Of a stretch of DNA of 64,000 bases, positions 13,627 to 62,874 are shown in pieces; the first letter of the stretch is position 1; every line of letters starts with the position of its first letter. Made by a program: the position numbers and the translations under genes. The stretch lies in the NCBI RefSeq assembly GCF_900117415.1, contig NZ_FPEI01000004.1:310001-374000 (forward strand), read 5' to 3'. Below the pieces are notes generated by a model. The model worked only from the letters and a program-made list of their open reading frames with translations. It was not told where the DNA came from and made no database searches. This stretch comes from Hyphomicrobium sp. CS1BSMeth3. Its GTDB lineage: Bacteria > Pseudomonadota > Alphaproteobacteria > Rhizobiales > Hyphomicrobiaceae.

Positions 13627-13712
13627 TCGCGCCTGCGGCGCGAGCGGGGCTAGCCCCGCACCCCATCGGGAGGGACACCCTCCCGAACCCGCCCGTCTTT
13701 ATGGACTTTGAG
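13627..13712 (-). repeat. Triple-stem intergenic repeat, copy 2
   Basis: Read on the minus strand: CATAAAGACGGGCGGG, then TCGGGAGGGTGTCCCTCCCGA, GCGGGGCTAGCCCCGC and TCGCGCCGCAGGCGCGA. Same order and spacing of stems as at 7549, with different stem sequence in the first two. Confidence 0.75.
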
Positions 13713-13735
13713 CGAGCCGCGAGTGCGACAGGTCC

Positions 13736-13853
13736 CTTCTCCCCGTCCCGACGGGGAGAAGGTTAGGATGAGGGGCAGCCACTTGCGTGACGCCGGCGTG
13801 TGCCGCCGCCCCCCACCCTAGCCCTCTCCCCGCGCGCGGGGAGAGGGGATCAA
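13736..13853. repeat. REP-type hairpin pair
   Basis: CTTCTCCCCGTCCCGACGGGGAGAAG, a spacer containing GGATGAGGGGC, then CCCTCTCCCCGCGCGCGGGGAGAGGG. The same hairpin/spacer style recurs at 20079, 20899, 29042, 48408, 58301 and 62590. Confidence 0.75.
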
Positions 13854-13878
13854 ATGGCGCTCGCGGCTAGCTCCAAGT

Positions 13879-13955
13879 CATAAAAGACGGGGGCTCCGGG
13901 GGTGTCCCCCGGGCGGAGCGCGAGGCAGCAGCCTCGCTCGCACCGAAGGTGCGAA
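13879..13955 (+). repeat. Triple-stem intergenic repeat, copy 3
   Basis: CATAAAAGACGGGGGCT, then CCGGGGGTGTCCCCCGG, GCGAGGCAGCAGCCTCGC and TCGCACCGAAGGTGCGA. Stems two and three differ from copy 1 at paired positions so that pairing is kept. Confidence 0.75.
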
Positions 13956-14427: not shown

Positions 14428-14790
14428 ATGCGCACACAGGTGGCTTTGGGTGCCGCGCTCGTCGTCGCCTCACTCTTTCTCGGCACGAGCTCGGCCTGGG
14501 CACAAGCCTATGTCGGCACTTGGGGCTCAAACGCGGTGCAGTGCGTGATCGACCAGAGCCTTCAGGGCGCGCCGATGATCGTGCGGCGCAATGGCTATGA
14601 TCAGCACGAGACGCACTGCCGGTTCGCGAGCCTTCGCAAGACGGGGAAGGCGTCGTGGCGCGTGCGGGCGCGGTGCAGCGTGGAAGGCAATCGCCAGACG
14701 CACACGTTCACGATGTCCGTGCAGGACAACTACATGACCATGCGCGATGGCCGCGGGGCGCGGAACTTCGTGCGCTGCCCTCGGCCCTAG
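14428..14790 (+). CDS. Small secreted protein
   Basis: 120 aa. Signal peptide: MRTQVALGAALVVASLFLG, cleavage near AWAQA (residues 24-26). The mature domain of ~95 residues opens with YVGTWGSNAVQC and ends ARNFVRCPRP, with four cysteines (in QCVID, HCRFA, RCSVE and RCPRP) that could make two disulfides. This looks like the small periplasmic proteins of about 120 aa common in Bradyrhizobium and relatives. GGGGGATCAC precedes the ATG. Function unknown. Confidence 0.75.
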   Translation: MRTQVALGAALVVASLFLGTSSAWAQAYVGTWGSNAVQCVIDQSLQGAPMIVRRNGYDQHETHCRFASLRKTGKASWRVRARCSVEGNRQTHTFTMSVQDNYMTMRDGRGARNFVRCPRP

Positions 14791-14801
14791 GCGCACCAGC
14801 C

Positions 14802-15278
14802 CTAGGCGCCAGCGCCCGACTTCAGCCGGCCGATGTGGAGATCGAAGGGATCGAGGACGTCGATCGGCGCCGGGGCCTCGCGGCTCATGCGCATGAAGGC
14901 CTCGAAACGGAGCGTGTCCTCGTAGCTGTCGATGCGATAGATGAGGCCGTCCTTGACCTCGAACACGAGGCGCCGCGAGCCTTCGATGACATTGCCGGTC
15001 GTGCGGTGGCGATAGCGGAAAAATACCTGCGCGCGCACGATGTTGTCCTCGACGCTGACGATCGTCGGCTCGTAGGTGAGGTAGTCGAACTCGGCGAGCA
15101 TGGCATAGCCGAGATCGCGGCAGCTTTCGGGGCCGCGGTAGACGCCCGAAAGCGGCGCGGCGTCCTGGCCGTTATGAATTGTATAAACGACGTCCGGGTG
15201 ACCGTGCGCGACGGCCATCTCGAGATCCTGCACGCTCCAGCACGCGAAGAACGAGGCAACGACCGACCGACTGTCCAT
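14802..15278 (-). CDS. NTF2/SnoaL-like paralogue 6 (last of the array)
   Basis: 158 aa, one NTF2-like alpha+beta cone domain. It has the array's shared landmarks: W at residue 14 followed by QDL, EFDYLTYEPTIVSVEDN near residue 63, FRYRHRTTGNVIEG near 89, and LVFEVKDGLIYRIDSYED. It is the most diverged copy: the shared LVEAFMRL becomes RFEAFMRM and the C-terminal QQREAANE tail is lost. Start at 15278 is preceded by GAAGGAGCGGGGG. Such domains bind small hydrophobic ligands or act as isomerases/hydratases; no catalytic assignment can be made. Confidence 0.85.
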   Translation of the reverse strand: MDSRSVVASFFACWSVQDLEMAVAHGHPDVVYTIHNGQDAAPLSGVYRGPESCRDLGYAMLAEFDYLTYEPTIVSVEDNIVRAQVFFRYRHRTTGNVIEGSRRLVFEVKDGLIYRIDSYEDTLRFEAFMRMSREAPAPIDVLDPFDLHIGRLKSGAGA

Positions 15279-15340
15279 CCCCCGCTCCTTCTCCGAGCTC
15301 GCGCCCCCACCGTCGTGAAGTCCGCGAGCCCCTTCGTGTG

Positions 15341-15811
15341 CTAGGCAGAGCCCTGCCGCTCGCGCCGCGGCAGTTGTGGTGCCTTGGCAAGTTGCTTGGT
15401 CGCCAACCTGTACTCGGTAAGGCGCATGAAAGCCTCGACGAGCTGCGCATCGTGATATCCGTTGACGCGCACGATGAGGCCGTTCTTCACATTGAACACG
15501 AGCCGCCGCGTGCCTTCGAGAATGCCGCCCGTGCGCCGGTGCTGATACCTGAAGCTGACCTGGGCGCGCACGACGCTGCCCCTGACGCTGATGATGGTCG
15601 GCTCGTAGCGCAGATAGTCGAATTCCTCGAGCAGCGAGAACAGCGCATCGCGGCAGGCGTCGACCCCGCGCCATTCCCCGCCGAAGGGCAACGTCGAGCT
15701 CGTGACGTGAAGCTTGTATGTAATGTTCTCGTGGAAGAGCGCGGCCGTCATTTCGACGTCCTGCACGCCCCAGCGCTCAAAGAAAGCCTCCACAACCTCG
15801 CGGCTGCTCAT
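15341..15811 (-). CDS. NTF2/SnoaL-like paralogue 5
   Basis: 156 aa, NTF2-like. It aligns with the other copies without gaps over about 140 residues: MSSREVVEAFFERWGVQDVE at the start, PFGGEWRG, EEFDYLRYEPTIISV, FRYQHRRTGGILEGT, VFNVKNGLIVRVNGY and LVEAFMRLTE. It is separated from paralogue 6 by 62 bp, consistent with one transcript reading toward 14802. Upstream, a 172-bp space separates it from the GNAT gene. Ligand unknown. Confidence 0.87.
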   Translation of the reverse strand: MSSREVVEAFFERWGVQDVEMTAALFHENITYKLHVTSSTLPFGGEWRGVDACRDALFSLLEEFDYLRYEPTIISVRGSVVRAQVSFRYQHRRTGGILEGTRRLVFNVKNGLIVRVNGYHDAQLVEAFMRLTEYRLATKQLAKAPQLPRRERQGSA

Positions 15812-15983
15812 CTCTCAACCCCGCGTCCTTCCCCCAAATTGAACGTACATTACTCCGACTAAATATCAAACGCTGCGATGGTCGCAGATGCGCGGCGTAT
15901 CCGCACGTACGCCGCCGGATGATCAGGCGCCCCTGCCCGGCTCAGCCGGGGCGCTTTTGCCTGAAAACATTAGGTCTGCAAAA

Positions 15984-16598
15984 TCAAACAATTGGGATCT
16001 GGGGCGCTGCCTGTTTTGGCATCAGCCCCTCGAGGCGCGGGTCGGGGTAGCACTCGATGCCGCGCGCATAGGGAACGAAGCCGGAGCGGACGTAGAATGC
16101 CAAGGCATCTGGGTGATCGTTCGTGCAGGTATGGACCCAGAATCGGCTGATCCGCGGCGCGCGGCTCCAGGCCCGCTCGGTGGCCCGGTTCATCAGGTAC
16201 CGCCCTGCACCGATGCCGATCGCTTCCGCCACAACGCCGAAGAACGCGAGCTCGCACGCTCCGGCACTCCGAAAGTCGAGCTGGAGGAGCCCGATCCCGT
16301 CCGCACCCGCATATAGCGTGTAGGTCTCCACGGCGTCCGAGGAAAGAACGGCGCCGAGCTCGGCATCGCTGCGGCGCAATTGCGAGGCCCACAGCCAGGG
16401 CTCACCGACGAGCCGGAAAATCCGCCGGTACTCGGCGACATCGGCGGGCATCCTCCTGAGCGCGAGCCCGCCGGCCGTATCGGGACGCGGCGGCGGAGGC
16501 GTCAGCATCTCGAGATAGGTGACGACCTCGGCGATCCACCCGGGCGGGAGCATCTGCGAGCGCTGCGGCGGGAGTTGCGTGGCACCATCCTCTGCCAT
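15984..16598 (-). CDS. GNAT-family N-acetyltransferase inside the NTF2 array
   Basis: 204 aa. The C-terminal half has the GNAT acetyl-CoA fold: LAFFGVVAEAIGIGAGRYLM (strand 4 and the Q/RxxGxG/A-type loop), then RFWVHTCTNDHPDALAFYVRSGF, typical of the strand 5-helix 4 region with 'A..FY...GF'. The N-terminal ~60 residues are an extra segment. The start ATG at 16598 overlaps the stop of the upstream NTF2-like gene (ATGA), so the two are translated together. The C-terminus ECYPDPRLEGLMPKQAAP is proline-rich. Substrate unknown; linkage to the NTF2-like genes is the main clue. Confidence 0.87.
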   Translation of the reverse strand: MAEDGATQLPPQRSQMLPPGWIAEVVTYLEMLTPPPPRPDTAGGLALRRMPADVAEYRRIFRLVGEPWLWASQLRRSDAELGAVLSSDAVETYTLYAGADGIGLLQLDFRSAGACELAFFGVVAEAIGIGAGRYLMNRATERAWSRAPRISRFWVHTCTNDHPDALAFYVRSGFVPYARGIECYPDPRLEGLMPKQAAPQIPIV

Positions 16599-17095
16599 CA
16601 GCTCTGCCCCTCCCTGTCCTGCGGCGTCGCGCATGTCCGGGCACGCCCTTTCGGCAGCTCCGGCGGCGCCTGCACCTCGTTCGCGGCCTCGCGCTGCTGC
16701 GTCAGGCGCATGAAGGCCTCGACCAGCCCCGCATCATGATGCTCGTCGACACGCGTGATCAAACCATCCTCGACCGCGAATACCATGCGCTTGGTGCCGG
16801 CCAGCAGGCCGCCCGTGCGCCGATGATGGTAGCGGAACTCGACCTGGGCGCGAACCACATCGCCGTCCTCGCCGACGATGGTCGGCGCGTAGTGCAGATA
16901 GTCGAAGTCGGCCAGCACCGCGTAGAGGACCTCGCGGCATCTTTCGCGCCCGCGGGTCTCGCCTCCATGAGGGACCGCTGAATTCGACAGATACAGGTTG
17001 TACACGACGTCCTCGGCAGCCAGCGAAAGCGCCATGTCCACATCCTGCGCCTTCCAGTACTCGAAGAACAACGCGACGACGTCTCGCCTATCCAT
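16598..17095 (-). CDS. NTF2/SnoaL-like paralogue 4
   Basis: 165 aa from the ATG at 17095; an ATG four codons upstream (17107) is possible, but the array's other members begin at the equivalent of 17095 and GGAGCG precedes it. Landmarks: MDRRDVVALFFEYWKAQDVD, ADFDYLHYAPTIVGEDGDVV, FRYHHRRTGGLLAGT, LVEAFMRLTQQREAANE. Its stop overlaps the GNAT start by four bases, implying coupled expression. The C-terminal tail after the domain is polar and has ARTCATPQDREG, not shared with the others. Confidence 0.87.
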   Translation of the reverse strand: MDRRDVVALFFEYWKAQDVDMALSLAAEDVVYNLYLSNSAVPHGGETRGRERCREVLYAVLADFDYLHYAPTIVGEDGDVVRAQVEFRYHHRRTGGLLAGTKRMVFAVEDGLITRVDEHHDAGLVEAFMRLTQQREAANEVQAPPELPKGRARTCATPQDREGQS

Positions 17096-17191
17096 GCCGC
17101 GCTCCATGGGGCTTCCCGCGACCTCGCCCCTCTGCCGGCTGCCTCGACCATCCCCGCGGCACCCGCCGCCACAAACGCCACACCAACACCT

Positions 17192-17713
17192 TTACCTGCA
17201 CTCCTCCTTCTCGCACGGCCTCTTGCTGCCGGCCGTGGCCACAGGCTCCGGCCGCCGCTCGCCGAACCTCGGAATTTCCGGCGGCTGCACGACTTCGCCC
17301 GCGGCCTCGCGCTGTTGCGTGAGCCGCATGAAGGCTTCGACGAGCCCCTGGTCGAGGTACTCGTCGCACCGCACCACCATGCCATCCTTCACCCGGAAGA
17401 CGGTCCGCATGGTGCCTTCGAGATTGCCGCCGGTCCGACGATGATGAAACTTGAATTGCGTCTGCACGCGCACGACGTCGTCGTCCACGCCGACGATCGC
17501 CCGGTCGAACCTCAGATAGTCGAACTGCTCCAGCATCATGTGGAGCGTGGCCCGCATCGCATCCTTGCCGACGGTCACGCCGCCGAACGGCACGGCATCT
17601 TCGGAAACATACAAGGCGTAGAACACATCATCGCTGCAGTGCGCGAGCGTCGTCTCGACGTCCTGCGTATTCCAAGACGCGATGAGGGATTCGATCACGG
17701 AGCGCGCATTCAT
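17192..17713 (-). CDS. NTF2/SnoaL-like paralogue 3
   Basis: 173 aa. Closest relative in the array is paralogue 2 (about 60% identical by eye, gap-free over ~145 residues), sharing QDVE.TLAHCSDDV and VVRVQTQFK.HHRRTG, which the other copies lack. So this pair is the most recent duplication. Other landmarks: EQFDYLRFDRAIVGVDDD, VFRVKDGMVVRCDEYLD, LVEAFMRLTQQREAAGE. The 25-residue C-terminal tail ends GSKRPCEKEECR, highly charged. Start at 17713 with ATTCATCC context; 30 bp from the preceding gene's stop. Confidence 0.87.
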   Translation of the reverse strand: MNARSVIESLIASWNTQDVETTLAHCSDDVFYALYVSEDAVPFGGVTVGKDAMRATLHMMLEQFDYLRFDRAIVGVDDDVVRVQTQFKFHHRRTGGNLEGTMRTVFRVKDGMVVRCDEYLDQGLVEAFMRLTQQREAAGEVVQPPEIPRFGERRPEPVATAGSKRPCEKEECR

Positions 17714-17743
17714 CCAAACATCCCCGTCGCGCCAGCCCTCCAG

Positions 17744-18271
17744 CTATTCACAGTGCTTTTCATCGGGCGTCTCGGGGACAGAGGTCGGCCGCGCCGGTCC
17801 GCCGGCGCTCCCCTTCGGCGCCCGGGCCGGCAGGCTCGGCGGCACGAAGATGATGTTCTCGGCCTCGCGCTGGCGCACCAGACGCATGAAAGCCTCGACG
17901 AGGCTCTCGTCGAGGTACTCCTCGCAGCGTGCCACCAATCCGTTCCGCACCGTGAAGACCGAGCGCATCGAGCCTTCGAGATTGCTGCCCGTCCGCCGGT
18001 GATGGAGCTTGAATTGCGTCTGCACGCGCACGACGTCACCGGCAACGCCGACGACCACCTGGTCGAACTTCAGATAGTCGAACATCTCCAGCATCAGGTG
18101 GAGCGCGGCACGAACGGCGTCCTTTCCCTCCGAGGTGCCAGCGAAGGGGGCCGCCTCTGCCGCGATGTTCACCGAATAGACGACGTCGTCACTGCAGTGC
18201 GCGAGCGTCGACTCGACATCCTGCGTGCTCCAGCTCCTGATGACCTGCTCCACGACAACGCGCGGGCTCAT
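17744..18271 (-). CDS. NTF2/SnoaL-like paralogue 2
   Basis: 175 aa. Start ATG at 18271 chosen by alignment with the other copies (MSPRVVVEQVIRSWSTQDVE); the frame extends upstream to 18337 only because it runs into the repeat element. Shares TLAHCSDDVVY and VRVQTQFKLHHRRTGSNLEG with paralogue 3. The tail after the domain is Pro/Ala/Gly-rich. The 190-bp gap to the upstream paralogue 1 is almost entirely filled by a 168-bp double-hairpin element, so these two genes may be expressed at different levels. Confidence 0.87.
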   Translation of the reverse strand: MSPRVVVEQVIRSWSTQDVESTLAHCSDDVVYSVNIAAEAAPFAGTSEGKDAVRAALHLMLEMFDYLKFDQVVVGVAGDVVRVQTQFKLHHRRTGSNLEGSMRSVFTVRNGLVARCEEYLDESLVEAFMRLVRQREAENIIFVPPSLPARAPKGSAGGPARPTSVPETPDEKHCE

Positions 18272-18297
18272 GCCTGTGCTCCAACTACGGACTGCTA

Positions 18298-18465
18298 CTC
18301 GTGTGATGATCGAGAAATTCGCCACATGTCGCGGCACGGTATCGAGCGAATTTCTCGATCTGAATCACACGAGCAAGTTTATGCTTCTAGTGTCCCTTTT
18401 TGATTCCGAAGTTCGCTCGGAACACCAGCATCGAGATATGGCGAACTTCGGAATTGGGACACTAG
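18298..18465. repeat. Double-hairpin element, copy A
   Basis: 168 bp. Hairpin 1: outer arms CTCGTGTGAT and AATCACACGAG, inner arms ATCGAGAAATTCGC and GCGAATTTCTCGAT. Hairpin 2: outer arms CTAGTGTCCC and GGGACACTAG, inner arms ATTCCGAAGTTCGC and GCGAACTTCGGAAT. Lies between paralogues 1 and 2 of the NTF2 array; its terminal CTAG supplies the stop codon of paralogue 1. Close copies at 22740 and 23782. Confidence 0.88.
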
Positions 18466-18980
18466 CAGCCCTCCTCATCATGAACCTTGGAGGCCATCGA
18501 AAGCGGTGGCCTCATGACTTCGACCGGCGGCCGCTTCGGAAATGCCGGCGGCGGCACGATGTCGTTTGCAGCTTCGCGCTGCCGCACCAACCGCATGAAG
18601 GCTTCGACGAGCCCTCTGTCGACGTACTCCTCGCAGCGGACGACCAGGCCATCCTTGACCGTGAAGACCGTACGGTAGGACCCTCCGATGTCCGATCCGG
18701 TGCGGCGATGCCGATACCGGTATCGCGTATGGACCCGCACCACATCACCTTCGACACCCATGATGGTGGGCTCGTACTCCAGATAGTCGAACTCCTCTAT
18801 CATCTTGTAGAAAGCCGCCATCATCGCATCGCGGCCTTCTGTGACGCCGGCAAAAGGCGCCAGTTCCTCGGCAATATACAGCGCGTAGACGACATCCTCG
18901 GCCGTGAAAACGAACGTCGACGCGACATCCTGCGTTCGCCAGCGCTTGAGAACCTCCTCGATGACGGACCGCGGATCCAC
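18462..18980 (-). CDS. NTF2/SnoaL-like paralogue 1 (first of the array)
   Basis: 172 aa from a GTG at 18980, preceded by TTGGAGCATTCTG; this start aligns VDPRSVIEEVLKRWRTQDV with the ATG starts of the other copies, whereas an ATG at 19034 adds 18 unrelated residues. Landmarks: EEFDYLEYEPTIMGVEGDVV, RYRYRHRRTGSDIGG, VFTVKDGLVVRCEEYVD, LVEAFMRLVRQREAAND. Its TAG stop lies inside the last four bases of the double-hairpin element, so the original C-terminus was probably changed by that insertion. First gene of the transcript, so the promoter should lie in 18981-19150. Confidence 0.82.
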   Translation of the reverse strand: MDPRSVIEEVLKRWRTQDVASTFVFTAEDVVYALYIAEELAPFAGVTEGRDAMMAAFYKMIEEFDYLEYEPTIMGVEGDVVRVHTRYRYRHRRTGSDIGGSYRTVFTVKDGLVVRCEEYVDRGLVEAFMRLVRQREAANDIVPPPAFPKRPPVEVMRPPLSMASKVHDEEGC

Positions 18981-19150
18981 CAGAATGCTCCAAATACGGA
19001 ATAATTTCCCTGGAGCGTATATTGACTGTCGCATTTGTCAAAAGCGCGGGCGGGAGCGGGCCGCACGGCCCCGCTTTCCGACCGCCGGCGCATGCGGTAT
19101 CACCGCAGCAAGGGCATTGATCTCAAGCAAAACGACACAGGAGTGACGCC

Positions 19151-19932: not shown

Positions 19933-20042
19933 GTTCGCGCCGTCGGCGCGACGGGCAAGGCTTTTGGTTGCGCGCCTCTGGCGCGACCGCCCCTGCTCCC
20001 AATCGGGGGGGACACCCTCCCGAACCCACCCGCCTTTATAGA
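19933..20042 (-). repeat. Triple-stem intergenic repeat, copy 4
   Basis: Minus strand: TATAAAGGCGGGTGGG, TCGGGAGGGTGTCCCCCCCGA, then GGTCGCGCCAGAGGCGCG and TCGCGCCGACGGCGCGA. Longer than the other copies, with an extra stem between the second and third. Confidence 0.65.
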
Positions 20043-20078
20043 TTTCGACTTCGCCGCGAGCGCACCACTGTCCCCTCT

Positions 20079-20220
20079 CCCCGTGCTTACGGGGAGAGGG
20101 TTAGGGTGAGGGGCGGCGGCACGCACCAACGTCAGCGCAAGCGGTCGCCCCTCATCCCGACCTTCTCCCCATTGAAGGCAATGGGGAGAAGGGGAAGTGG
20201 GGCGCCTCATACGCTGCGCT
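20079..20220. repeat. REP-type hairpin pair
   Basis: CCCTCTCCCCGTGCTTACGGGGAGAGGG, a spacer with GGGTGAGGGGCGG, then CCTTCTCCCCATTGAAGG and AATGGGGAGAAGG. Part of the 453-bp gap 19931-20383, which is filled with repeats. Confidence 0.75.
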
Positions 20221-20234
20221 GTCGCTATGGCCGC

Positions 20235-20371
20235 CGCGGGCATAGCACTACAGTGTGGTTGCGAAGCACCCCTTCCCAGCAGCCCACGGCACTCAAACAA
20301 ACCACTGTCGCGGGCATGGCACCACAGTGTGATTGCAAAGCACCCTTTCCGGCAGCCCGCGGCACTAAAAC
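20235..20371. repeat. 74-bp tandem repeat (two copies)
   Basis: Each unit begins CGCGGGCAT(A/G)GCAC and contains CAGTGTG.TTGC.AAGCACCC and GGCAGCCC.CGGCACT; units start at 20235 and 20309 (period 74). A third copy lies at 21067-21140, beyond the pentapeptide-repeat gene. Confidence 0.7.
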
Positions 20372-20898: not shown

Positions 20899-21046
20899 CA
20901 TGTCCCTTCTCCCCGTCTTATACGGGGAGAAGGTTAGGATGAGGGGCGGGAGCTTGCGCGACGTAAGCGTATGCCGCCGCCCCTCACCCCGACCCTCTCC
21001 CCATTGAAGACAATGGGGAGAGGGGGAAGTGGGGCGCGTCATAGGC
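20899..21046. repeat. REP-type hairpin pair
   Basis: CTTCTCCCCGTCTTATACGGGGAGAAG, spacer with GGATGAGGGGCGGGAG, then CCCTCTCCCCATTGAAG and CAATGGGGAGAGGG. Nearly the same arrangement as 20079-20220, on the other side of the pentapeptide gene. Confidence 0.75.
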
Positions 21047-21066
21047 CGCGCTGTCGCTCTGGCCGC

Positions 21067-21140
21067 CGCGGGCATGGCACTACAGTGCGATTGCGAAGCA
21101 CCCCTTCCCGGCAGCCCGCGGCACTAAACAAACGCGGCAC
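21067..21140. repeat. Third copy of the 74-bp repeat
   Basis: CGCGGGCATGGCACTACAGT, then GCGATTGCGAAGCACCCC and GGCAGCCCGCGGCACTAAAC; followed by a short direct duplication of CGCGGCACTAAACAAA. Directly precedes the 3' end of the TcuA-like gene. Confidence 0.65.
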
Positions 21141-22739: not shown

Positions 22740-22906
22740 CTAGTGTGATGATCGAGAAATTCGCCACCTCCCGCGGCGCCGCATCGAGCGAATTTCTCGA
22801 TCTGAATCACACTAGCAAGTTTATGATTCTAGTGTCCCTTTTAATTCCGAAGTTCGCTCAGAACGCCGGCATCGAGGTGCGGCGAACTTCGGAATTGGGA
22901 CACTAG
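22740..22906. repeat. Double-hairpin element, copy B
   Basis: 167 bp. Hairpin 1 outer arms CTAGTGTGAT and AATCACACTAG: relative to copy A a C-G pair has become A-T on both sides. Hairpin 2 outer arms CTAGTGTCCC/GGGACACTAG, inner ATTCCGAAGTTCGC/GCGAACTTCGGAAT. Begins and ends with CTAGTGT/ACACTAG. Lies between the TcuA-like gene and the SDR gene. Confidence 0.88.
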
Positions 22907-23781: not shown

Positions 23782-23947
23782 CTCGTGTAATGATCGAGAA
23801 ATTCGCCACCTGTCGCGGCCGGTATGGAGCGAATTTCTCGATCTGAATCACACGAGCAAAATTATGATTCTAGTGCCCCTTTTGTTTCCGAAGCTCGCTC
23901 GGAACGTCAGCATCGAGGTGGGGCGAACTTCGGAAACGGGACACTAG
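23782..23947. repeat. Double-hairpin element, copy C
   Basis: 166 bp. Hairpin 1 outer arms CTCGTGTAAT/AATCACACGAG; inner ATCGAGAAATTCGC/GCGAATTTCTCGAT. Hairpin 2 outer CTAGTGCCCC/GGGACACTAG, inner TTTCCGAA/TTCGGAAA where copies A and B have ATTCCGAA/TTCGGAAT, a compensated change. Direct repeat of copy B on the other side of the SDR gene. Confidence 0.88.
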
Positions 23948-29041: not shown

Positions 29042-29082
29042 CCCCTTCCCCTTCTCCCCGTAAGAACGGGGAGAGGGGAAAG
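29042..29082. repeat. REP-type hairpin
   Basis: CCCCTTCTCCCCGTAAGAAC then GGGGAGAGGGG; a single-hairpin member of the family found at 13736 and 20079. It lies 3' of both the deacetylase and the AhpD-like gene (convergent). Confidence 0.7.
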
Positions 29083-30442: not shown

Positions 30443-30609
30443 CTAAAGCGTCGGACCCTCAAATGCGACCCACGGTTCGGATCGGGCTCGATATCGCATT
30501 TGAGGTCCAAAGACGCTTTAGAGTCAAACAGTCCTAAAGCAACTTTGGACTTGAAATTCGCTCCCTGCCCGCCGTCGACGTGAGGCGAATTTCAAGTCCG
30601 TTGCTTTAG
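30443..30609. repeat. Double-hairpin element, sister family
   Basis: 167 bp, the same length and plan as the elements at 18298/22740/23782 but different sequence. Hairpin 1: outer CTAAAGCGTC/GACGCTTTAG, inner CCTCAAATGCGA/TCGCATTTGAGG. Hairpin 2: outer CTAAAGCAAC/GTTGCTTTAG, inner GGACTTGAAATTCGC/GCGAATTTCAAGTCC. Lies between the DsbA-like gene and the PilZ gene, which are divergent. Confidence 0.85.
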
Positions 30610-35194: not shown

Positions 35195-35417
35195 CCCGCC
35201 TGCGCTGCGCGACCTCGGCGCGCGCCAATGAGCGCCCCAAAATGCAGCGAGGCGGGCTGGTCCATTCCTTTGGGCCCGCCTGCGCTGCGCGATGTCGGCG
35301 CCCACGAACTTCGGTCCCAAAATGCAGCGAGGCGGGCTGGTCCGTTCCTTTGGGCCCGCCTGCGCTGCGCGACCTCGGCGCCCACGAACCGCGATCCCAA
35401 AATGCAGCGAGGCGGGC
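35195..35417. repeat. Tandem array of three 80-bp hairpin units
   Basis: CCCGCCTGCGCTGC recurs at 35195, 35275 and 35355, exactly 80 bp apart. Each unit closes with AATGCAGCGAGGCGGG, which pairs with the opening arm (one bulged base). The loops vary in their middle. It lies about 85 bp upstream of the coiled-coil gene. Confidence 0.85.
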
Positions 35418-35849
35418 CCGGGCGCCCGCCTCGCAACGGACAGGTGCACGCACCCGCCCGGGCCTCTCGGCCTCTACCAGTTGTCGATGCTGACGCCGAC
35501 TGTGGATTTGGCGCGCAGCGGCTCCCCTGCGCCGGCGCGCCAACTCATCGAGCTCGGGCTCCGGGCCTCCGCTCTTCTCACGGGCAGGACGACGCCAGCA
35601 CTAGGCCTCGCGCGCCGCCCCACCGATCCAATTGCCGGTGCACAGAAAACCGCGTTCCCCCCGCGCTTCCCGCGCCCGCCATGTTCATGCAGCCAGCCCT
35701 CTCGGAGCGGCGCACGGACACGCGATCCGGCATGACCTCAGAATAGCGGCGAACCACTTAACAAAACCTTAAACGGCGTGCCGCACGCGGTCGTCGGCCG
35801 ACGGCAGCAAGCCGCTCGGCCCCCTCGCGTCCCGGGCTTTCAGTTGCCC
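35418..35849. other. Gene-free stretch, nothing recognised
   Basis: No frame with homology, ribosome site and typical codon use. The 80-bp array lies at its left edge. The C-terminus of the monooxygenase-like gene starts at 35850. Confidence 0.4.
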
Positions 35850-48303: not shown

Positions 48304-48407
48304 CCGGCTTTTGCCGCGGGCTGCTGGGAAGAGGTGCTGTCGCCCTCCTTAGTAGTGCTATGCCCGCGGCCGCCAGAGCGAGGGCGCTCGCGTGTGATGC
48401 CGTTCTT

Positions 48408-48441
48408 CCCCTTCTCCCCGTCCTTACGGGGAGAGGGGAAC
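48408..48441. repeat. REP-type hairpin
   Basis: CCCCTTCTCCCCGTCCTTAC then GGGGAGAGGGGAAC. Lies 3' of the response regulator and of the ABC transporter, which are convergent. Just upstream (48350-48380) is a fragment of the 74-bp repeat in inverted orientation. Confidence 0.65.
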
Positions 48442-58300: not shown

Positions 58301-58425
58301 TCCCCTCCCCCTTGTGAGGAGGGGTTAGGGGTGGGGGGAATCCCTGCCGCTAGTGTTCTGCAATCCCCCTCCTAGCCTCCCCCACGTCGCGCCGAAGGCG
58401 CGCCTTCAGCGCTGAGTGGGAGGAA
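58301..58425. repeat. REP-type repeat, same subfamily as the uvrB insert
   Basis: CCCCTCCCCCTTGTGAGGAG, GGGTTAGGGGTGGGGGGAAT, then GTTCTGCAATCCCCCTCC and a GTGGGAGGAA end. Closest to the element inside uvrB (62590-62700), with a small extra stem GCGCCGAAGGCGC. Confidence 0.75.
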
Positions 58426-60024: not shown

Positions 60025-62874
60025 TCACATCCCCGGCCGCCCGGTCTTTCGCGGCCGACCACGCCGCCCTTTCTTCTCGGCTTTCGTCGGCACATCGATC
60101 GTGCGCGTCGGCTTCGGCGGCGGCGTACCACCCACTGGCACTTCCGTTCGCCCGACCGTCATCTCGTCGAGCGTCGGCTTGCGCACGCGCGAGGTCGATT
60201 GCGCGTAGGTGGGTTGTACGGGCTGATAGTCTTTGTTGATCCGCGACTCCGTCGCGGCGCCCGCTCGGGCGCTCGCCGCTTCGCCACGCTCCGGCGGCAT
60301 ATTCGCGCTGGCGCCGTACTTGCGCGCACCCTTGAACGCACCGGCGCGATCCTCGACATCCGACTGCCGCGCCAATGGATCATCAGCGACCGCAAGCTCC
60401 GTCTCGCGCAGGCGCTTGATCTCGTCGCGCAGCCGCGCCGCGTCCTCGAACTCGAGATCGGCCGCCGCATCGCGCATGCGCCGCTCCATGTCCTCGATGA
60501 CCTTCGCGAGGTTGTGGCCGACGAGCGGCTGATCCGCGAGGCCGAGATCCACCGTCACGTGATCCTGCTCGTAGACCGATGCCATCGCATCGCCGATCGA
60601 CTTGCGCACGCTCTCCGGCGTGATGCCGTTCGCCGCGTTCCACGCCATCTGCTTCTCGCGGCGCCGATCGGTCTCGCTCATCGCGCGATCCATCGAGCCG
60701 GTGATCTGGTCGGCGTAGAGGATCACCTTGCCGTCGACGTTGCGCGCCGCGCGGCCGATCGTCTGGATCAGCGACGTCTCCGAGCGGAGAAAACCTTCCT
60801 TGTCGGCATCGAGGATCGCGACGAGACCGCACTCGGGAATGTCGAGGCCCTCGCGCAGCAGGTTGATGCCGATCAGCACATCGAACGCGCCGAGCCGCAG
60901 GTCGCGAATGATCTCGATGCGCTCCAGCGTCTCGATATCCGAGTGCATGTAGCGCACGCGAATGCCGTTCTCGTGCATGTACTCGGTGAGATCCTCGGCC
61001 ATGCGCTTCGTGAGCACCGTCACGAGCGTGCGGTAGCCCGCGCGCGTCACCTGCCGCACTTCGTCGAGCAGATCATCCACCTGCGACTTCGCGGGCCGCA
61101 CCTCGACGACCGGATCGACGAGCCCCGTCGGCCGGATCACCTGCTCGACGAACGTGCCGCCGGATTGTTCCATCTCCCAGCCGCCCGGCGTTGCCGAGAC
61201 GTACGTCGTCTGCGGCCGCATGGCGTCCCATTCCTCGAAGCGCAGCGGACGATTGTCCATGCACGAGGGCAGGCGGAAGCCGAACTCGGCGAGCGTCGCC
61301 TTGCGCCGGTAATCGCCGCGGAACATGCCGCCGATCTGCGGCACGGTCACGTGGCTCTCGTCGGCGAACACGAGCGCATTGTCCGGCAAATACTCGAACA
61401 GCGTCGGCGGCGGCTCGCCGGGATTGCGGCCCGTCAGATAGCGCGAGTAGTTCTCGATGCCTGCGCACGAGCCCGTCGCTTCCATCATCTCGATATCGAA
61501 GAGTGTGCGCTGCTCGAGTCGCTGCGCCTCCAGCAGCTTGCCGGCGGCGTACAGCTCCTCGAGCCGCTGCTTGAGCTCGACCTTGATGGACGCCACGGCC
61601 TGCTGCAGCGTCGGCTTCGGCGTCACGTAGTGCGAGTTGGCGTAGACCTTCACGAGCTTGAGCTCGTCGGTCTTCTGTCCCGTCAGCGGATCGAACTCGG
61701 TGATCGCCTCGATCTCGTCGCCGAACAGCGAGATCCGCCACGCGCGATCTTCCAAATGCGCCGGGAACACTTCCACCGTATCGCCGCGCACCCGAAAGGC
61801 GCCGCGCTGGAAAGACGCGTCATTGCGCCGGTAGTGCAGCGCCACGAGATCCGCGAGGAGCTGATCGCGCGAGATCTGATCGCCGACCTGCACCTGCAGC
61901 GTCATGGCCGTGTAGGTCTCGACCGAGCCGATACCGTAGATGCACGACACCGACGCCACGATGATGACGTCGTCACGTTCGAGCAGCGCGCGCGTCGCGG
62001 CGTGGCGCATCCGGTCGATCTGCTCGTTCACCGAGGCTTCCTTCTCGATGTACGTGTCCGTTCGCGGCACGTACGCCTCGGGCTGGTAGTAGTCGTAGTA
62101 CGAGACAAAGTACTCGACCGCATTCGACGGGAAGAAGCTCTTGAACTCGCCGTAGAGCTGCGCCGCGAGCGTCTTGTTCGGCGCGAGGATGAGCGCCGGT
62201 CGCTGCGTCCGCGCGATCACGTGCGCCATCGTGAAGGTCTTGCCCGAACCGGTGACGCCGAGCAGCACCTGATTGCGCTCGTGCTGGGTCACACCTTCGA
62301 CAAGCTCCGCGATCGCCTGCGGCTGGTCGCCGCGCGGCTCGAACTCGGATTCGAGCTTGAAGGCGACGCCGCCCTCGGATTTCTCCGGCCGCTCCGGGCG
62401 GTGCGGCATGAACATCGGCATGTTGCCGGCGACCAGCGGATGCGCCGCGATCATCGGCTGCTGCGCGATCAGCGCCTTTGCGCGCTCGGATCGTTCCTCG
62501 GGCCGCGCGAGGATCGCGTTCAGCGTCGCCGATGGCGAGAAGTCCTCCGGCCGCGGCTTCACCTGGCGAAGCGCAGGCAAGACCGCTTTTCCCCCTCCCC
62601 CTTGTGGGGAGGGGTCAGGGGTGGGGGGAACCCCTACCGCTGATGTTCTGCCATCCCCCCCTCCCTGGCCCTCCCCCACCAGGGGGGAGGAAATAACCCA
62701 CGGCGTGCTCGGCAAAAACGGCGCCTGTGGCGCTTCGCCGAAGCCGGGCGTCCCGGCGCCGGTCTCGACGGGCGGCCCGACAGGCTTGCCCGAACGGCCG
62801 CGCGACGGGCGCGGGCGCGGCGTCGTATCGGCGTCCTTGGTCTTTTTCGGGGGTGACTTGGGGGATTTGGCCAT
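60025..62874 (-). CDS. uvrB: Excinuclease ABC subunit B (UvrB) with N- and C-terminal extensions
   Basis: 949 aa against about 670 for E. coli UvrB. The helicase-like core runs from [17 protein letters not shown] with Walker A GVTGSGKT (206-213), the beta-hairpin region [20 protein letters not shown] and motif VI GRAARN, to a C-terminal UVR motif ([16 protein letters not shown]). The ~175-residue N-terminal extension holds an in-frame REP-derived segment (residues 59-95). The ~120-residue tail after the UVR motif ends with [11 protein letters not shown], an AT-hook-like motif. Start ATG 62874. Confidence 0.96.
62590..62700. repeat. REP-type palindromic element inside uvrB
   Basis: 111 bp (37 codons) with the same sequence plan as the intergenic element at 58301: TTTTCCCCCTCCCCCTTGTG, GGGGTGGGGGGAACCCCTAC, GCCATCCCCCCCTCC and GGGGGGAGGAAATA. 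Length is a multiple of three and it carries no stop in the uvrB frame; it encodes [10 protein letters not shown] and [12 protein letters not shown]. Confidence 0.85.

What the first reader, a model, noticed from the sequence alone, without database searches (positions are those of the whole stretch)
30443..30609. A second double-hairpin element of the same length and plan but different sequence
This copy is exactly 167 bp like copy B. Outer arms are CTAAAGCGTC/GACGCTTTAG and CTAAAGCAAC/GTTGCTTTAG. Shared length and two-hairpin design with unrelated arms suggests a superfamily in which architecture, not sequence, is kept, perhaps through a shared mobilising enzyme.
Basis: partly seen in the sequence, partly recalled or inferred. 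Interest (0 to 1): 0.5.

Follow-up and report, generated by a model that had tools for sequence, protein, structure and literature searches.

The report
Paired-hairpin mobile DNA inserted at CTAG
This is one of dozens of small two-hairpin pieces of mobile DNA in this bacterium, kept at nearly the same length and shape although much of their sequence differs, which inserted neatly at the rare four-letter site CTAG; relatives occur in other alphaproteobacteria, and the enzyme that moves them was not found.

Summary
Window 30443-30609 is two long bulged hairpins, 79 and 76 nt, joined by a 12-nt linker. It is one of at least 34 copies of family F2 in this 6.0-Mb genome; the window's other double hairpins belong to a second family, F1 (31 copies examined). 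Lengths are narrow: F2 158-167, F1 164-169. A covariance model of F2 finds F1. 153 elements from many alphaproteobacteria share one plan: 10-bp outer stem, 2-4 nt bulge on the linker-facing strand, inner stem, loop, 11-13 nt linker. Stems keep pairing while sequence changes (96% Watson-Crick, 65% after shuffling). The two hairpins are inverted homologues.
It is mobile DNA. Of 17 loci examined, 7 have an empty site reading CTAG exactly at the junction in at least one sister species, a word found about once per 2.5 kb. Four transposase domain families searched gave no match in this genome, so the mobiliser is unknown.
The closest described kind is the CIR element of Caulobacter and Brucella (about 110 bp, two arms, linker, GANTC). 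I rate this a new variant of that kind.

The parts
30443..30609 (+). complete F2 double-hairpin element (H1 - linker - H2)
   Evidence: CM score 180.5 bits (this copy is one of the 12 the model was built from); orthologous site empty in G002, G003, G004
30443..30521 (+). hairpin H1: outer 10-bp stem CTAAAGCGTC/GACGCTTTAG, inner stem, apical loop
30509..30511 (+). AAA bulge of H1, on the linker-facing strand
   Evidence: the same place in 142 of 153 elements (0 nt on the other side, 3 or 4 nt here)
30522..30533 (+). 12-nt linker
   Evidence: linker of 11-13 nt in 150 of 153 elements (89 of these were found with a pattern that fixed a 13-nt linker)
30521..30525 (+). GAGTC, a GANTC word across the H1/linker junction (GANTC is the CcrM methylation word)
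   Evidence: present at this junction in 14 of 33 F2 and 20 of 31 F1 copies; link of GANTC to the cell-cycle methyltransferase from PMC2229807 section 7
30534..30609 (+). hairpin H2: outer 10-bp stem CTAAAGCAAC/GTTGCTTTAG, inner stem, apical loop; inverted homologue of H1
30544..30546 (+). TTT bulge of H2, on the linker-facing strand
   Evidence: 2-4 nt here and 0 on the other side in 145 of 153 elements
30443..30445 (+). left junction CTA; the empty site of three congeners reads CTAG here
30607..30609 (+). right junction TAG; the TA is either a target duplication or carried by the element
18298..18465 (-). F1 double hairpin (168 nt), same superfamily
   Evidence: 94.3 bits to the F2 model; site empty in G004, reading CTCG
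22740..22906 (-).
   Evidence: 96.7 bits; site empty in G002, G003 and G004 but no CTAG there
23782..23947 (-). F1 double hairpin (166 nt), left end CTCG
   Evidence: 96.1 bits; site empty and reading CTAG in G002, G003 and G004

Best explanation
The element is non-autonomous mobile DNA: a dyad of two homologous hairpins in inverted orientation, moved in trans by a recombinase that reads the paired, bulged hairpins and joins the element into CTAG. SHOWN: copies are dispersed; orthologous sites in sister species are empty; the junction reads CTAG in at least one sister at 7 of 17 loci examined and is one base from CTAG at 5 more; stems are kept by pairing while sequence drifts; some copies in relatives sit in tandem sharing one CTAG. 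INFERRED: a single trans-acting enzyme recognises the outer 7-bp box, the bulge and the GAARTTCG core; the fourth to seventh outer positions set family specificity; the ends CTA...TAG supply a stop codon when the site is at a gene end, which makes insertion mild. NOT KNOWN: the enzyme, whether the intermediate is single- or double-stranded, and whether the second TA is a 2-bp target duplication or part of the element.
For: Dispersed copies: 43 single hairpins with exact CTAAAGC ends, 34 F2 and 31 F1 copies examined; most similar pair 98.2% (F2) and 95.8% (F1). Empty sites: this locus reads CTAG in G002, G003 and G004; L018, L022, L046, L060, L069 and window 23782 also read CTAG in at least one congener; five more are one substitution away (L016, L020, L028, L033, window 18298), which alone would prove little. 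CTAG is rare: 25 in 63,328 bp, against about 200 expected from base composition. Tandem copies in relatives overlap by exactly 4 bp, CTAG (G011 C2:894925-895090 and 895087-895253; L154, L162). 15 of 61 copies have an end on a predicted gene's stop codon, against 9 of 68 other CTAG sites in the same flanks and 9 of 12,200 random positions: what CTAG targeting predicts. Architecture and covariation. H1 and H2 are inverted homologues, 0 of 2000 randomised hairpins as good in both families.
Against: 5 of 17 loci gave no usable or no CTAG-like empty site (L023, L047, L059, L068, window 22740). No mobiliser was found: PF01797, PF13358 and PF01609 gave no match in this genome, PF13586 none in 11 element-bearing genomes, this one included. 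Movement is inferred from species comparisons, not seen. Loss in all sisters instead of gain here is less parsimonious but not excluded locus by locus. Some copies are shared by descent (L085 with L049, L039 with L061).
Confidence: 0.85

Rival explanations
1. A MITE of a DDE transposase that duplicates TA (IS630/Tc1-mariner type, or IS711, which duplicates the TA of YTAR; that IS711 belongs to the IS5/IS427 group is recalled). The TA at each end is a target duplication and the termini are terminal inverted repeats.
For: Empty CTAG against occupied C-TA-[AAGC...GCTT]-TA-G. IS711 duplicates the TA of YTAR and is reported to favour the Bru-RS palindromes (PMC2266754, passages seen). IS630-family insertion duplicates TA (PMC2170065, passages); a preference for TA in CTAG was seen only as the title of a reference there.
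Against: No DDE_3, DDE_Tnp_1 or DDE_Tnp_1_2 domain in this genome. DDE_3 occurs in 6 of 14 element-bearing and 9 of 22 other genomes of the family, so no association. At window 23782 the sisters read CTAG but the left end here is CTCG, matching the inner arm; 6 of 11 F1 copies with inner CTCG have outer CTCG against 0 of 19 with inner CTAG, which fits an end carried by the element or later arm correction better than a plain TA duplication. In named genomes this could not be tested: only 3 of 89 elements have inner CTCG, 1 of them with outer CTCG.
Confidence: 0.3
2. A REPIN-like element moved by a Y1 (REP-associated) tyrosine transposase acting on single-stranded hairpins.
For: Same logic: inverted pair of imperfect palindromes with a spacer, compensatory changes, doublet as the unit (PMC3116915, passages). 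Bulged hairpins and a fixed four-base site fit a Y1 enzyme (recalled).
Against: No Y1_Tnp domain in any of the 5 genomes of the genus, all of which carry the elements; in the family 2 of 14 bearers and 3 of 22 others have one. Hairpins here are about 76-79 nt, against 20-40 bp for REPs in the abstract of PMC3733652 (seen), and neither the GTAG nor the CGTC tag is the rule at the ends.
Confidence: 0.12
3. A functional RNA or terminator element of the host (mRNA 3' stabiliser, attenuator), kept for its hairpins rather than mobile.
For: Strong paired stems with compensatory changes; 58 of 62 copies do not overlap a predicted gene by more than 60 bp.
Against: Contexts are mixed (32 tandem, 15 divergent, 9 convergent, 2 undetermined, 4 overlapping), so no fixed position relative to transcription. 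CTAG sites are themselves mostly intergenic (17 of 25 in the window), so the location needs no function. Empty sites in sisters and the CTAG junction call for insertion. No Rfam family matches in the window.
Confidence: 0.1

Closest known systems
[quoted passage not shown] known here through PMC2229807 section 7)
   Same: Two long inverted-repeat arms joined by a linker, intergenic, GANTC words, found in Caulobacter, Brucella and related alphaproteobacteria; mechanism of mobility unexplained.
   Different: CIR is about 110 bp, here 158-169; the GANTC of CIR is described at a terminal loop of one stem-loop, here it lies at the H1/linker junction and in only part of the copies. The CIR sequences themselves could not be fetched. 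The section read describes no CTAG target.
RIME, Rhizobium-specific intergenic mosaic element (Osteras 1995; original not held)
   Same: Repeated intergenic elements of rhizobia with conserved sequence and secondary structure (passages in PMC2573895).
   Different: Size and sequence not compared; a recalled form of about 108 bp with two palindromes comes from memory, not from a call.
Bru-RS1/Bru-RS2 of Brucella (PMC2267715, PMC2266754, passages)
   Same: Palindromic repeats of an alphaproteobacterium; associated with insertions of IS711, whose target is YTAR.
   Different: 103-105 bp as tabulated in PMC2267715; sequences not fetched.
REPIN (PMC3116915, passages)
   Same: Inverted doublet of imperfect palindromes as the unit, variable spacer sequence, compensatory changes.
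   Different: Much longer hairpins here, different ends, and no Y1 transposase found in this genus.

Membership tests
CIR | two inverted-repeat arms joined by a linker | tested here: met
CIR | GANTC word conserved | tested here: inconclusive
   junction GANTC in 20 of 31 F1, 14 of 33 F2 and 7 of 23 relatives' elements, either strand; F1 overall enriched (89 against 48.7 expected), F2 not (24 against 26.6)
CIR | length about 110 bp | tested here: not met
   158-169 nt
CIR | sequence similarity to CIR1-CIR4 | not testable with these tools
   CIR paper not held; its sequences were not at hand
CIR | intergenic | tested here: met
   4 of 62 copies overlap a predicted gene by more than 60 bp, by an approximate gene model
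REPIN/REP | inverted doublet of palindromes | tested here: met
REPIN/REP | cognate Y1 (RAYT) transposase in the lineage | tested here: not met
   0 of 5 genomes of the genus
REPIN/REP | GTAG or CGTC tag at one end | tested here: not met
   ends are mostly CTAA (F2) or CTAG, some CTCG (F1)
MITE of IS630 or IS5 type | TA target duplication | tested here: inconclusive
   TA on both sides in most copies, but CTCG-ended copies, one at a CTAG site, do not fit
MITE of IS630 or IS5 type | parent transposase in the genome | tested here: not met
   no PF13358, PF01609 or PF13586 match in this genome; a full-length element with the same ends was not searched for
RIME / Bru-RS | sequence similarity to the described elements | not tested
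   sequences not at hand; RIME paper not held

The most novel reading that the evidence does not exclude
The superfamily is served by an undescribed, chromosomally encoded recombinase of alphaproteobacteria that acts on the folded two-hairpin DNA. It would cut asymmetrically, with the H1 side taking CTA from the target and the H2 side bringing its own terminal dinucleotide (insertion at CTA^G, no true target duplication), and it might be timed by CcrM methylation of the GANTC word at the linker. Evidence not excluding it: the transposase domains searched do not track the elements; in F1 the outer H2 end changes with the inner arm (6 of 11 against 0 of 19), and at window 23782 it does so although the sisters' site is CTAG; at window 18298, however, the one sister that aligns reads CTCG itself. 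The N of GANTC in F2 linkers is free while its neighbours are conserved (C 14, G 8, T 7, A 3 of 32), but only 14 of 33 F2 copies have the full word.
Probability: 0.2. Interest if true: 0.8.

Novelty: new variant of a known kind. Interest (0 to 1): 0.55.

Why it matters
Small palindromic repeats of alphaproteobacteria (CIR, RIME, Bru-RS) have been described since the 1990s; the review section read here says that more information is needed on the mechanism of mobility of CIR. Here the target (CTAG), empty sites in sister species, the near-invariant bulge and linker geometry, and transposase domains that do not track the elements turn that into a testable question: which enzyme reads a paired bulged hairpin and CTAG? 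It also suggests how a mobile element can settle at genes' stop codons with little harm.

Tried and rejected
Rfam search of the window: no match. An F1 copy against the plasmid collection: no match; a Mesorhizobium element matched six plasmid records of Rhizobium, Martelella, Aminobacter, Agrobacterium and Ochrobactrum; a CTAGAGC-type 142-nt element matched none. Viral contigs: 2 stretches with the linker pattern, 0 with an F2 arm pattern, not followed up. Integron attC was set aside from memory of its consensus boxes, not by a call; IS110 bridge RNA and IS91-type elements were considered from memory only and not searched. Twenty proteins beside the element and beside element clusters were scanned: 18 match host-type families, 2 match nothing, none is a transposase or integrase.
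A first stop-codon test on raw open frames did not discriminate (31 of 61 copies; controls 21 of 53 CTAG sites and 36% of random positions). I rely on gene models instead, which are approximate (codon model trained on the window) and count the stop seen today, not the gene's stop before insertion. The GANTC idea is only partly supported. Shuffles ignore relatedness, so 96% against 65% overstates independent evidence; single linkage at 75% gives 8 clusters. Left out of counts: truncated or hybrid hits L102, L103, L105, L107-L111; 29 of 118 named-genome hits without both outer arms; 1 of 34 F2 copies. The genome search scored 150 of 2653 candidates, so copy numbers are lower bounds; it missed two window copies that one search found. 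One of the 12 rows of the model alignment (L015) carried 4 flanking bases, which fell into gap columns.

Full report
What is there. Window 30443-30609 reads CTAAAGCGTC, an inner stem, a loop, the inner stem's complement, AAA, GACGCTTTAG (H1, 79 nt); a 12-nt linker; then CTAAAGCAAC, TTT, an inner stem, a loop, its complement, GTTGCTTTAG (H2, 76 nt). It folds far better than shuffles (z -10.6, 0 of 200). The bulges lie on the linker-facing strand of each hairpin, so the two hairpins are in inverted orientation: the reverse complement of the H1 consensus aligns with the H2 consensus better than any of 2000 randomised hairpins, in F2 and in F1. The element lies between a divergently read DsbA-like gene and a PilZ gene.

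The family in this genome. An exact-end pattern finds 43 single hairpins. A covariance model from 12 copies finds the F2 family and, at about 74-106 bits on the better strand, a second family F1 that includes the three other double hairpins of the window. I examined 34 F2 and 31 F1 copies. Lengths are 158-167 and 164-169; median pairwise identities 0.81 and 0.87; closest pairs 0.982 and 0.958. In the 12-sequence alignment 8 of 57 predicted pairs have a change on both sides that keeps the pair.

The superfamily. With the F2 model, 14 of 60 genomes match: 5 of 5 of the genus including this one, 9 of 31 other genomes of the family, 0 of 24 from other families of the order (stricter filters, 48 candidates scored per genome). 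So the 0 of 24 speaks of the F2 model, not of the superfamily. The congener G004 has a contig of 602,391 bases, the same length as JALHMB010000004.1, titled Hyphomicrobiaceae bacterium; that the host is of that family is inference. Of 118 pattern hits 89 have both outer arms, total length 163-173. Over 153 elements (89 named, 31 F1, 33 F2), H1 has its bulge only on the 3' side (3 or 4 nt, 142 of 153) and H2 only on the 5' side (2-4 nt, 145 of 153); stem positions are Watson-Crick in 96.0% of cells against 64.7% after shuffling partners. The first seven outer bases are identical between H1 and H2 in 87 of 153 elements (33.8 after shuffling), positions 8-10 in 1 of 153 (14.3 after shuffling). 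The inner stem has a recurrent core GAARTTCG; linkers share a CATA core. Two genomes gave shorter double hairpins of 142 and 122 nt (L057, L058).

Insertion. The orthologous site of the element is empty in G002, G003 and G004, reading CACG-CTAG-T; here it reads CACG-CTA[AAGC...GCTT]TAG-TG; G001 lacks it too but the junction cannot be aligned. In all I examined 17 loci: this one, 7 F1 copies of the window. CTAG stands at the junction in at least one congener at 7: this locus, L018, L022, L046, L060 (followed by extra sequence), L069 and window 23782. Five are one base away in at least one congener: L016 CTAT, L020 TTAG or GTAG, L028 CTTG, L033 CTAA, window 18298 CTCG. Five are uninformative or negative: L023, L047, L059, L068, window 22740. 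CTAG occurs 25 times in 63,328 bp of the window outside the elements and 67 times in 175,820 bp of flanks. Tandem copies in relatives share one CTAG, as expected when a copy enters the CTAG at the end of an older one. Fifteen of 61 copies have an end on the stop codon of a predicted gene, L020 and L076 on both sides between convergent genes; 9 of 68 other CTAG sites in the flanks and 3 of 25 in the window do, and 9 of 12,200 random positions. Orthologous copies also exist: L085 here and L049 in G001, L039 (same place as L009) here and L061 in G003, judged from matching flanks, so copies can persist.

How it probably works. The dyad of homologous bulged hairpins, the family-specific outer box and the fixed target suggest one trans-acting recombinase that brings two hairpins together and joins the element to CTAG. 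Which class is open. No Y1_Tnp domain was found in the genus. DDE_3 is absent here and does not track the elements (6 of 14 bearers, 9 of 22 others). DDE_Tnp_1 is absent here; DDE_Tnp_1_2 is absent from 11 bearers and found in 3 of 6 others, one of them below the curated cut-off. Other transposase families were not searched. Twenty proteins beside elements show no transposase. A TA duplication explains most junctions, but F1 copies whose inner H2 arm reads CTCG have CTCG at the outer end in 6 of 11 cases, against 0 of 19 when the inner arm reads CTAG, and at window 23782 the sisters' site is CTAG. Either the end is carried by the element or hairpin-guided correction changes it later. At window 18298 the sister reads CTCG, which would also fit a target of that sequence.

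Known relatives. The nearest description is the CIR element: about 110 bp, two arms, a linker, GANTC, intergenic, in Caulobacter, Brucella and other alphaproteobacteria, mobility unexplained (PMC2229807, section 7 read; also named in PMC10969869, passages). Length does not match and sequences could not be compared, so I do not file this as CIR but as the same kind. RIME and Bru-RS are likely neighbours (passages). REPINs share the inverted doublet logic (PMC3116915, passages) but not the enzyme. Paper searches; none of the listings or passages I saw described double hairpins of about 165 nt inserted at CTAG, but most subscription journals are not in that library.

Limits. Copy numbers are lower bounds. 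Shuffle controls ignore relatedness. The genomes compared are distinct species, so empty sites have drifted. No movement has been observed.

Noticed in passing
window 29045-29082: A short G+C-rich palindrome (CCCTTCTCCCCGT...ACGGGGAGAGGG) that matches dozens of other places in the four congeners (query 546-584): a separate high-copy repeat family.
   Followed up: no
window 13635-13891, 19972-20350, 20915-21128, 48312-48440: A longer set of repeats, direct and inverted, about 73-93% alike, several holding GGGGAGA palindromes.
   Followed up: no
window 35195-35434: Three head-to-tail copies of an 80-bp unit, 73% and 85% like the first.
   Followed up: no
window 14650-19034: A run of repeated coding-like sequence; two predicted proteins there were checked and both match SnoaL-like domains.
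   Followed up: partly
window, whole: CTAG is about eightfold rarer than base composition predicts (25 against about 200 outside the elements), in a genome rich in elements that insert at CTAG.
   Followed up: partly
L057 (G023 C5) and L058 (G030 C187): Shorter double hairpins of 142 and 122 nt with CTAGAGC-type ends, possibly the RIME or CIR size class of the same superfamily.
   Followed up: partly
L050/L065 (G011), L154, L162: Tandem arrays of elements overlapping by exactly one CTAG.
   Followed up: partly
window 58302-58369 and 62592-62659: Two 68-nt copies, 90% alike, of a C-rich repeat.
   Followed up: no
L320, L321: Two viral contigs carry the linker pattern; whether they are true phage sequence was not checked.
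   Followed up: no
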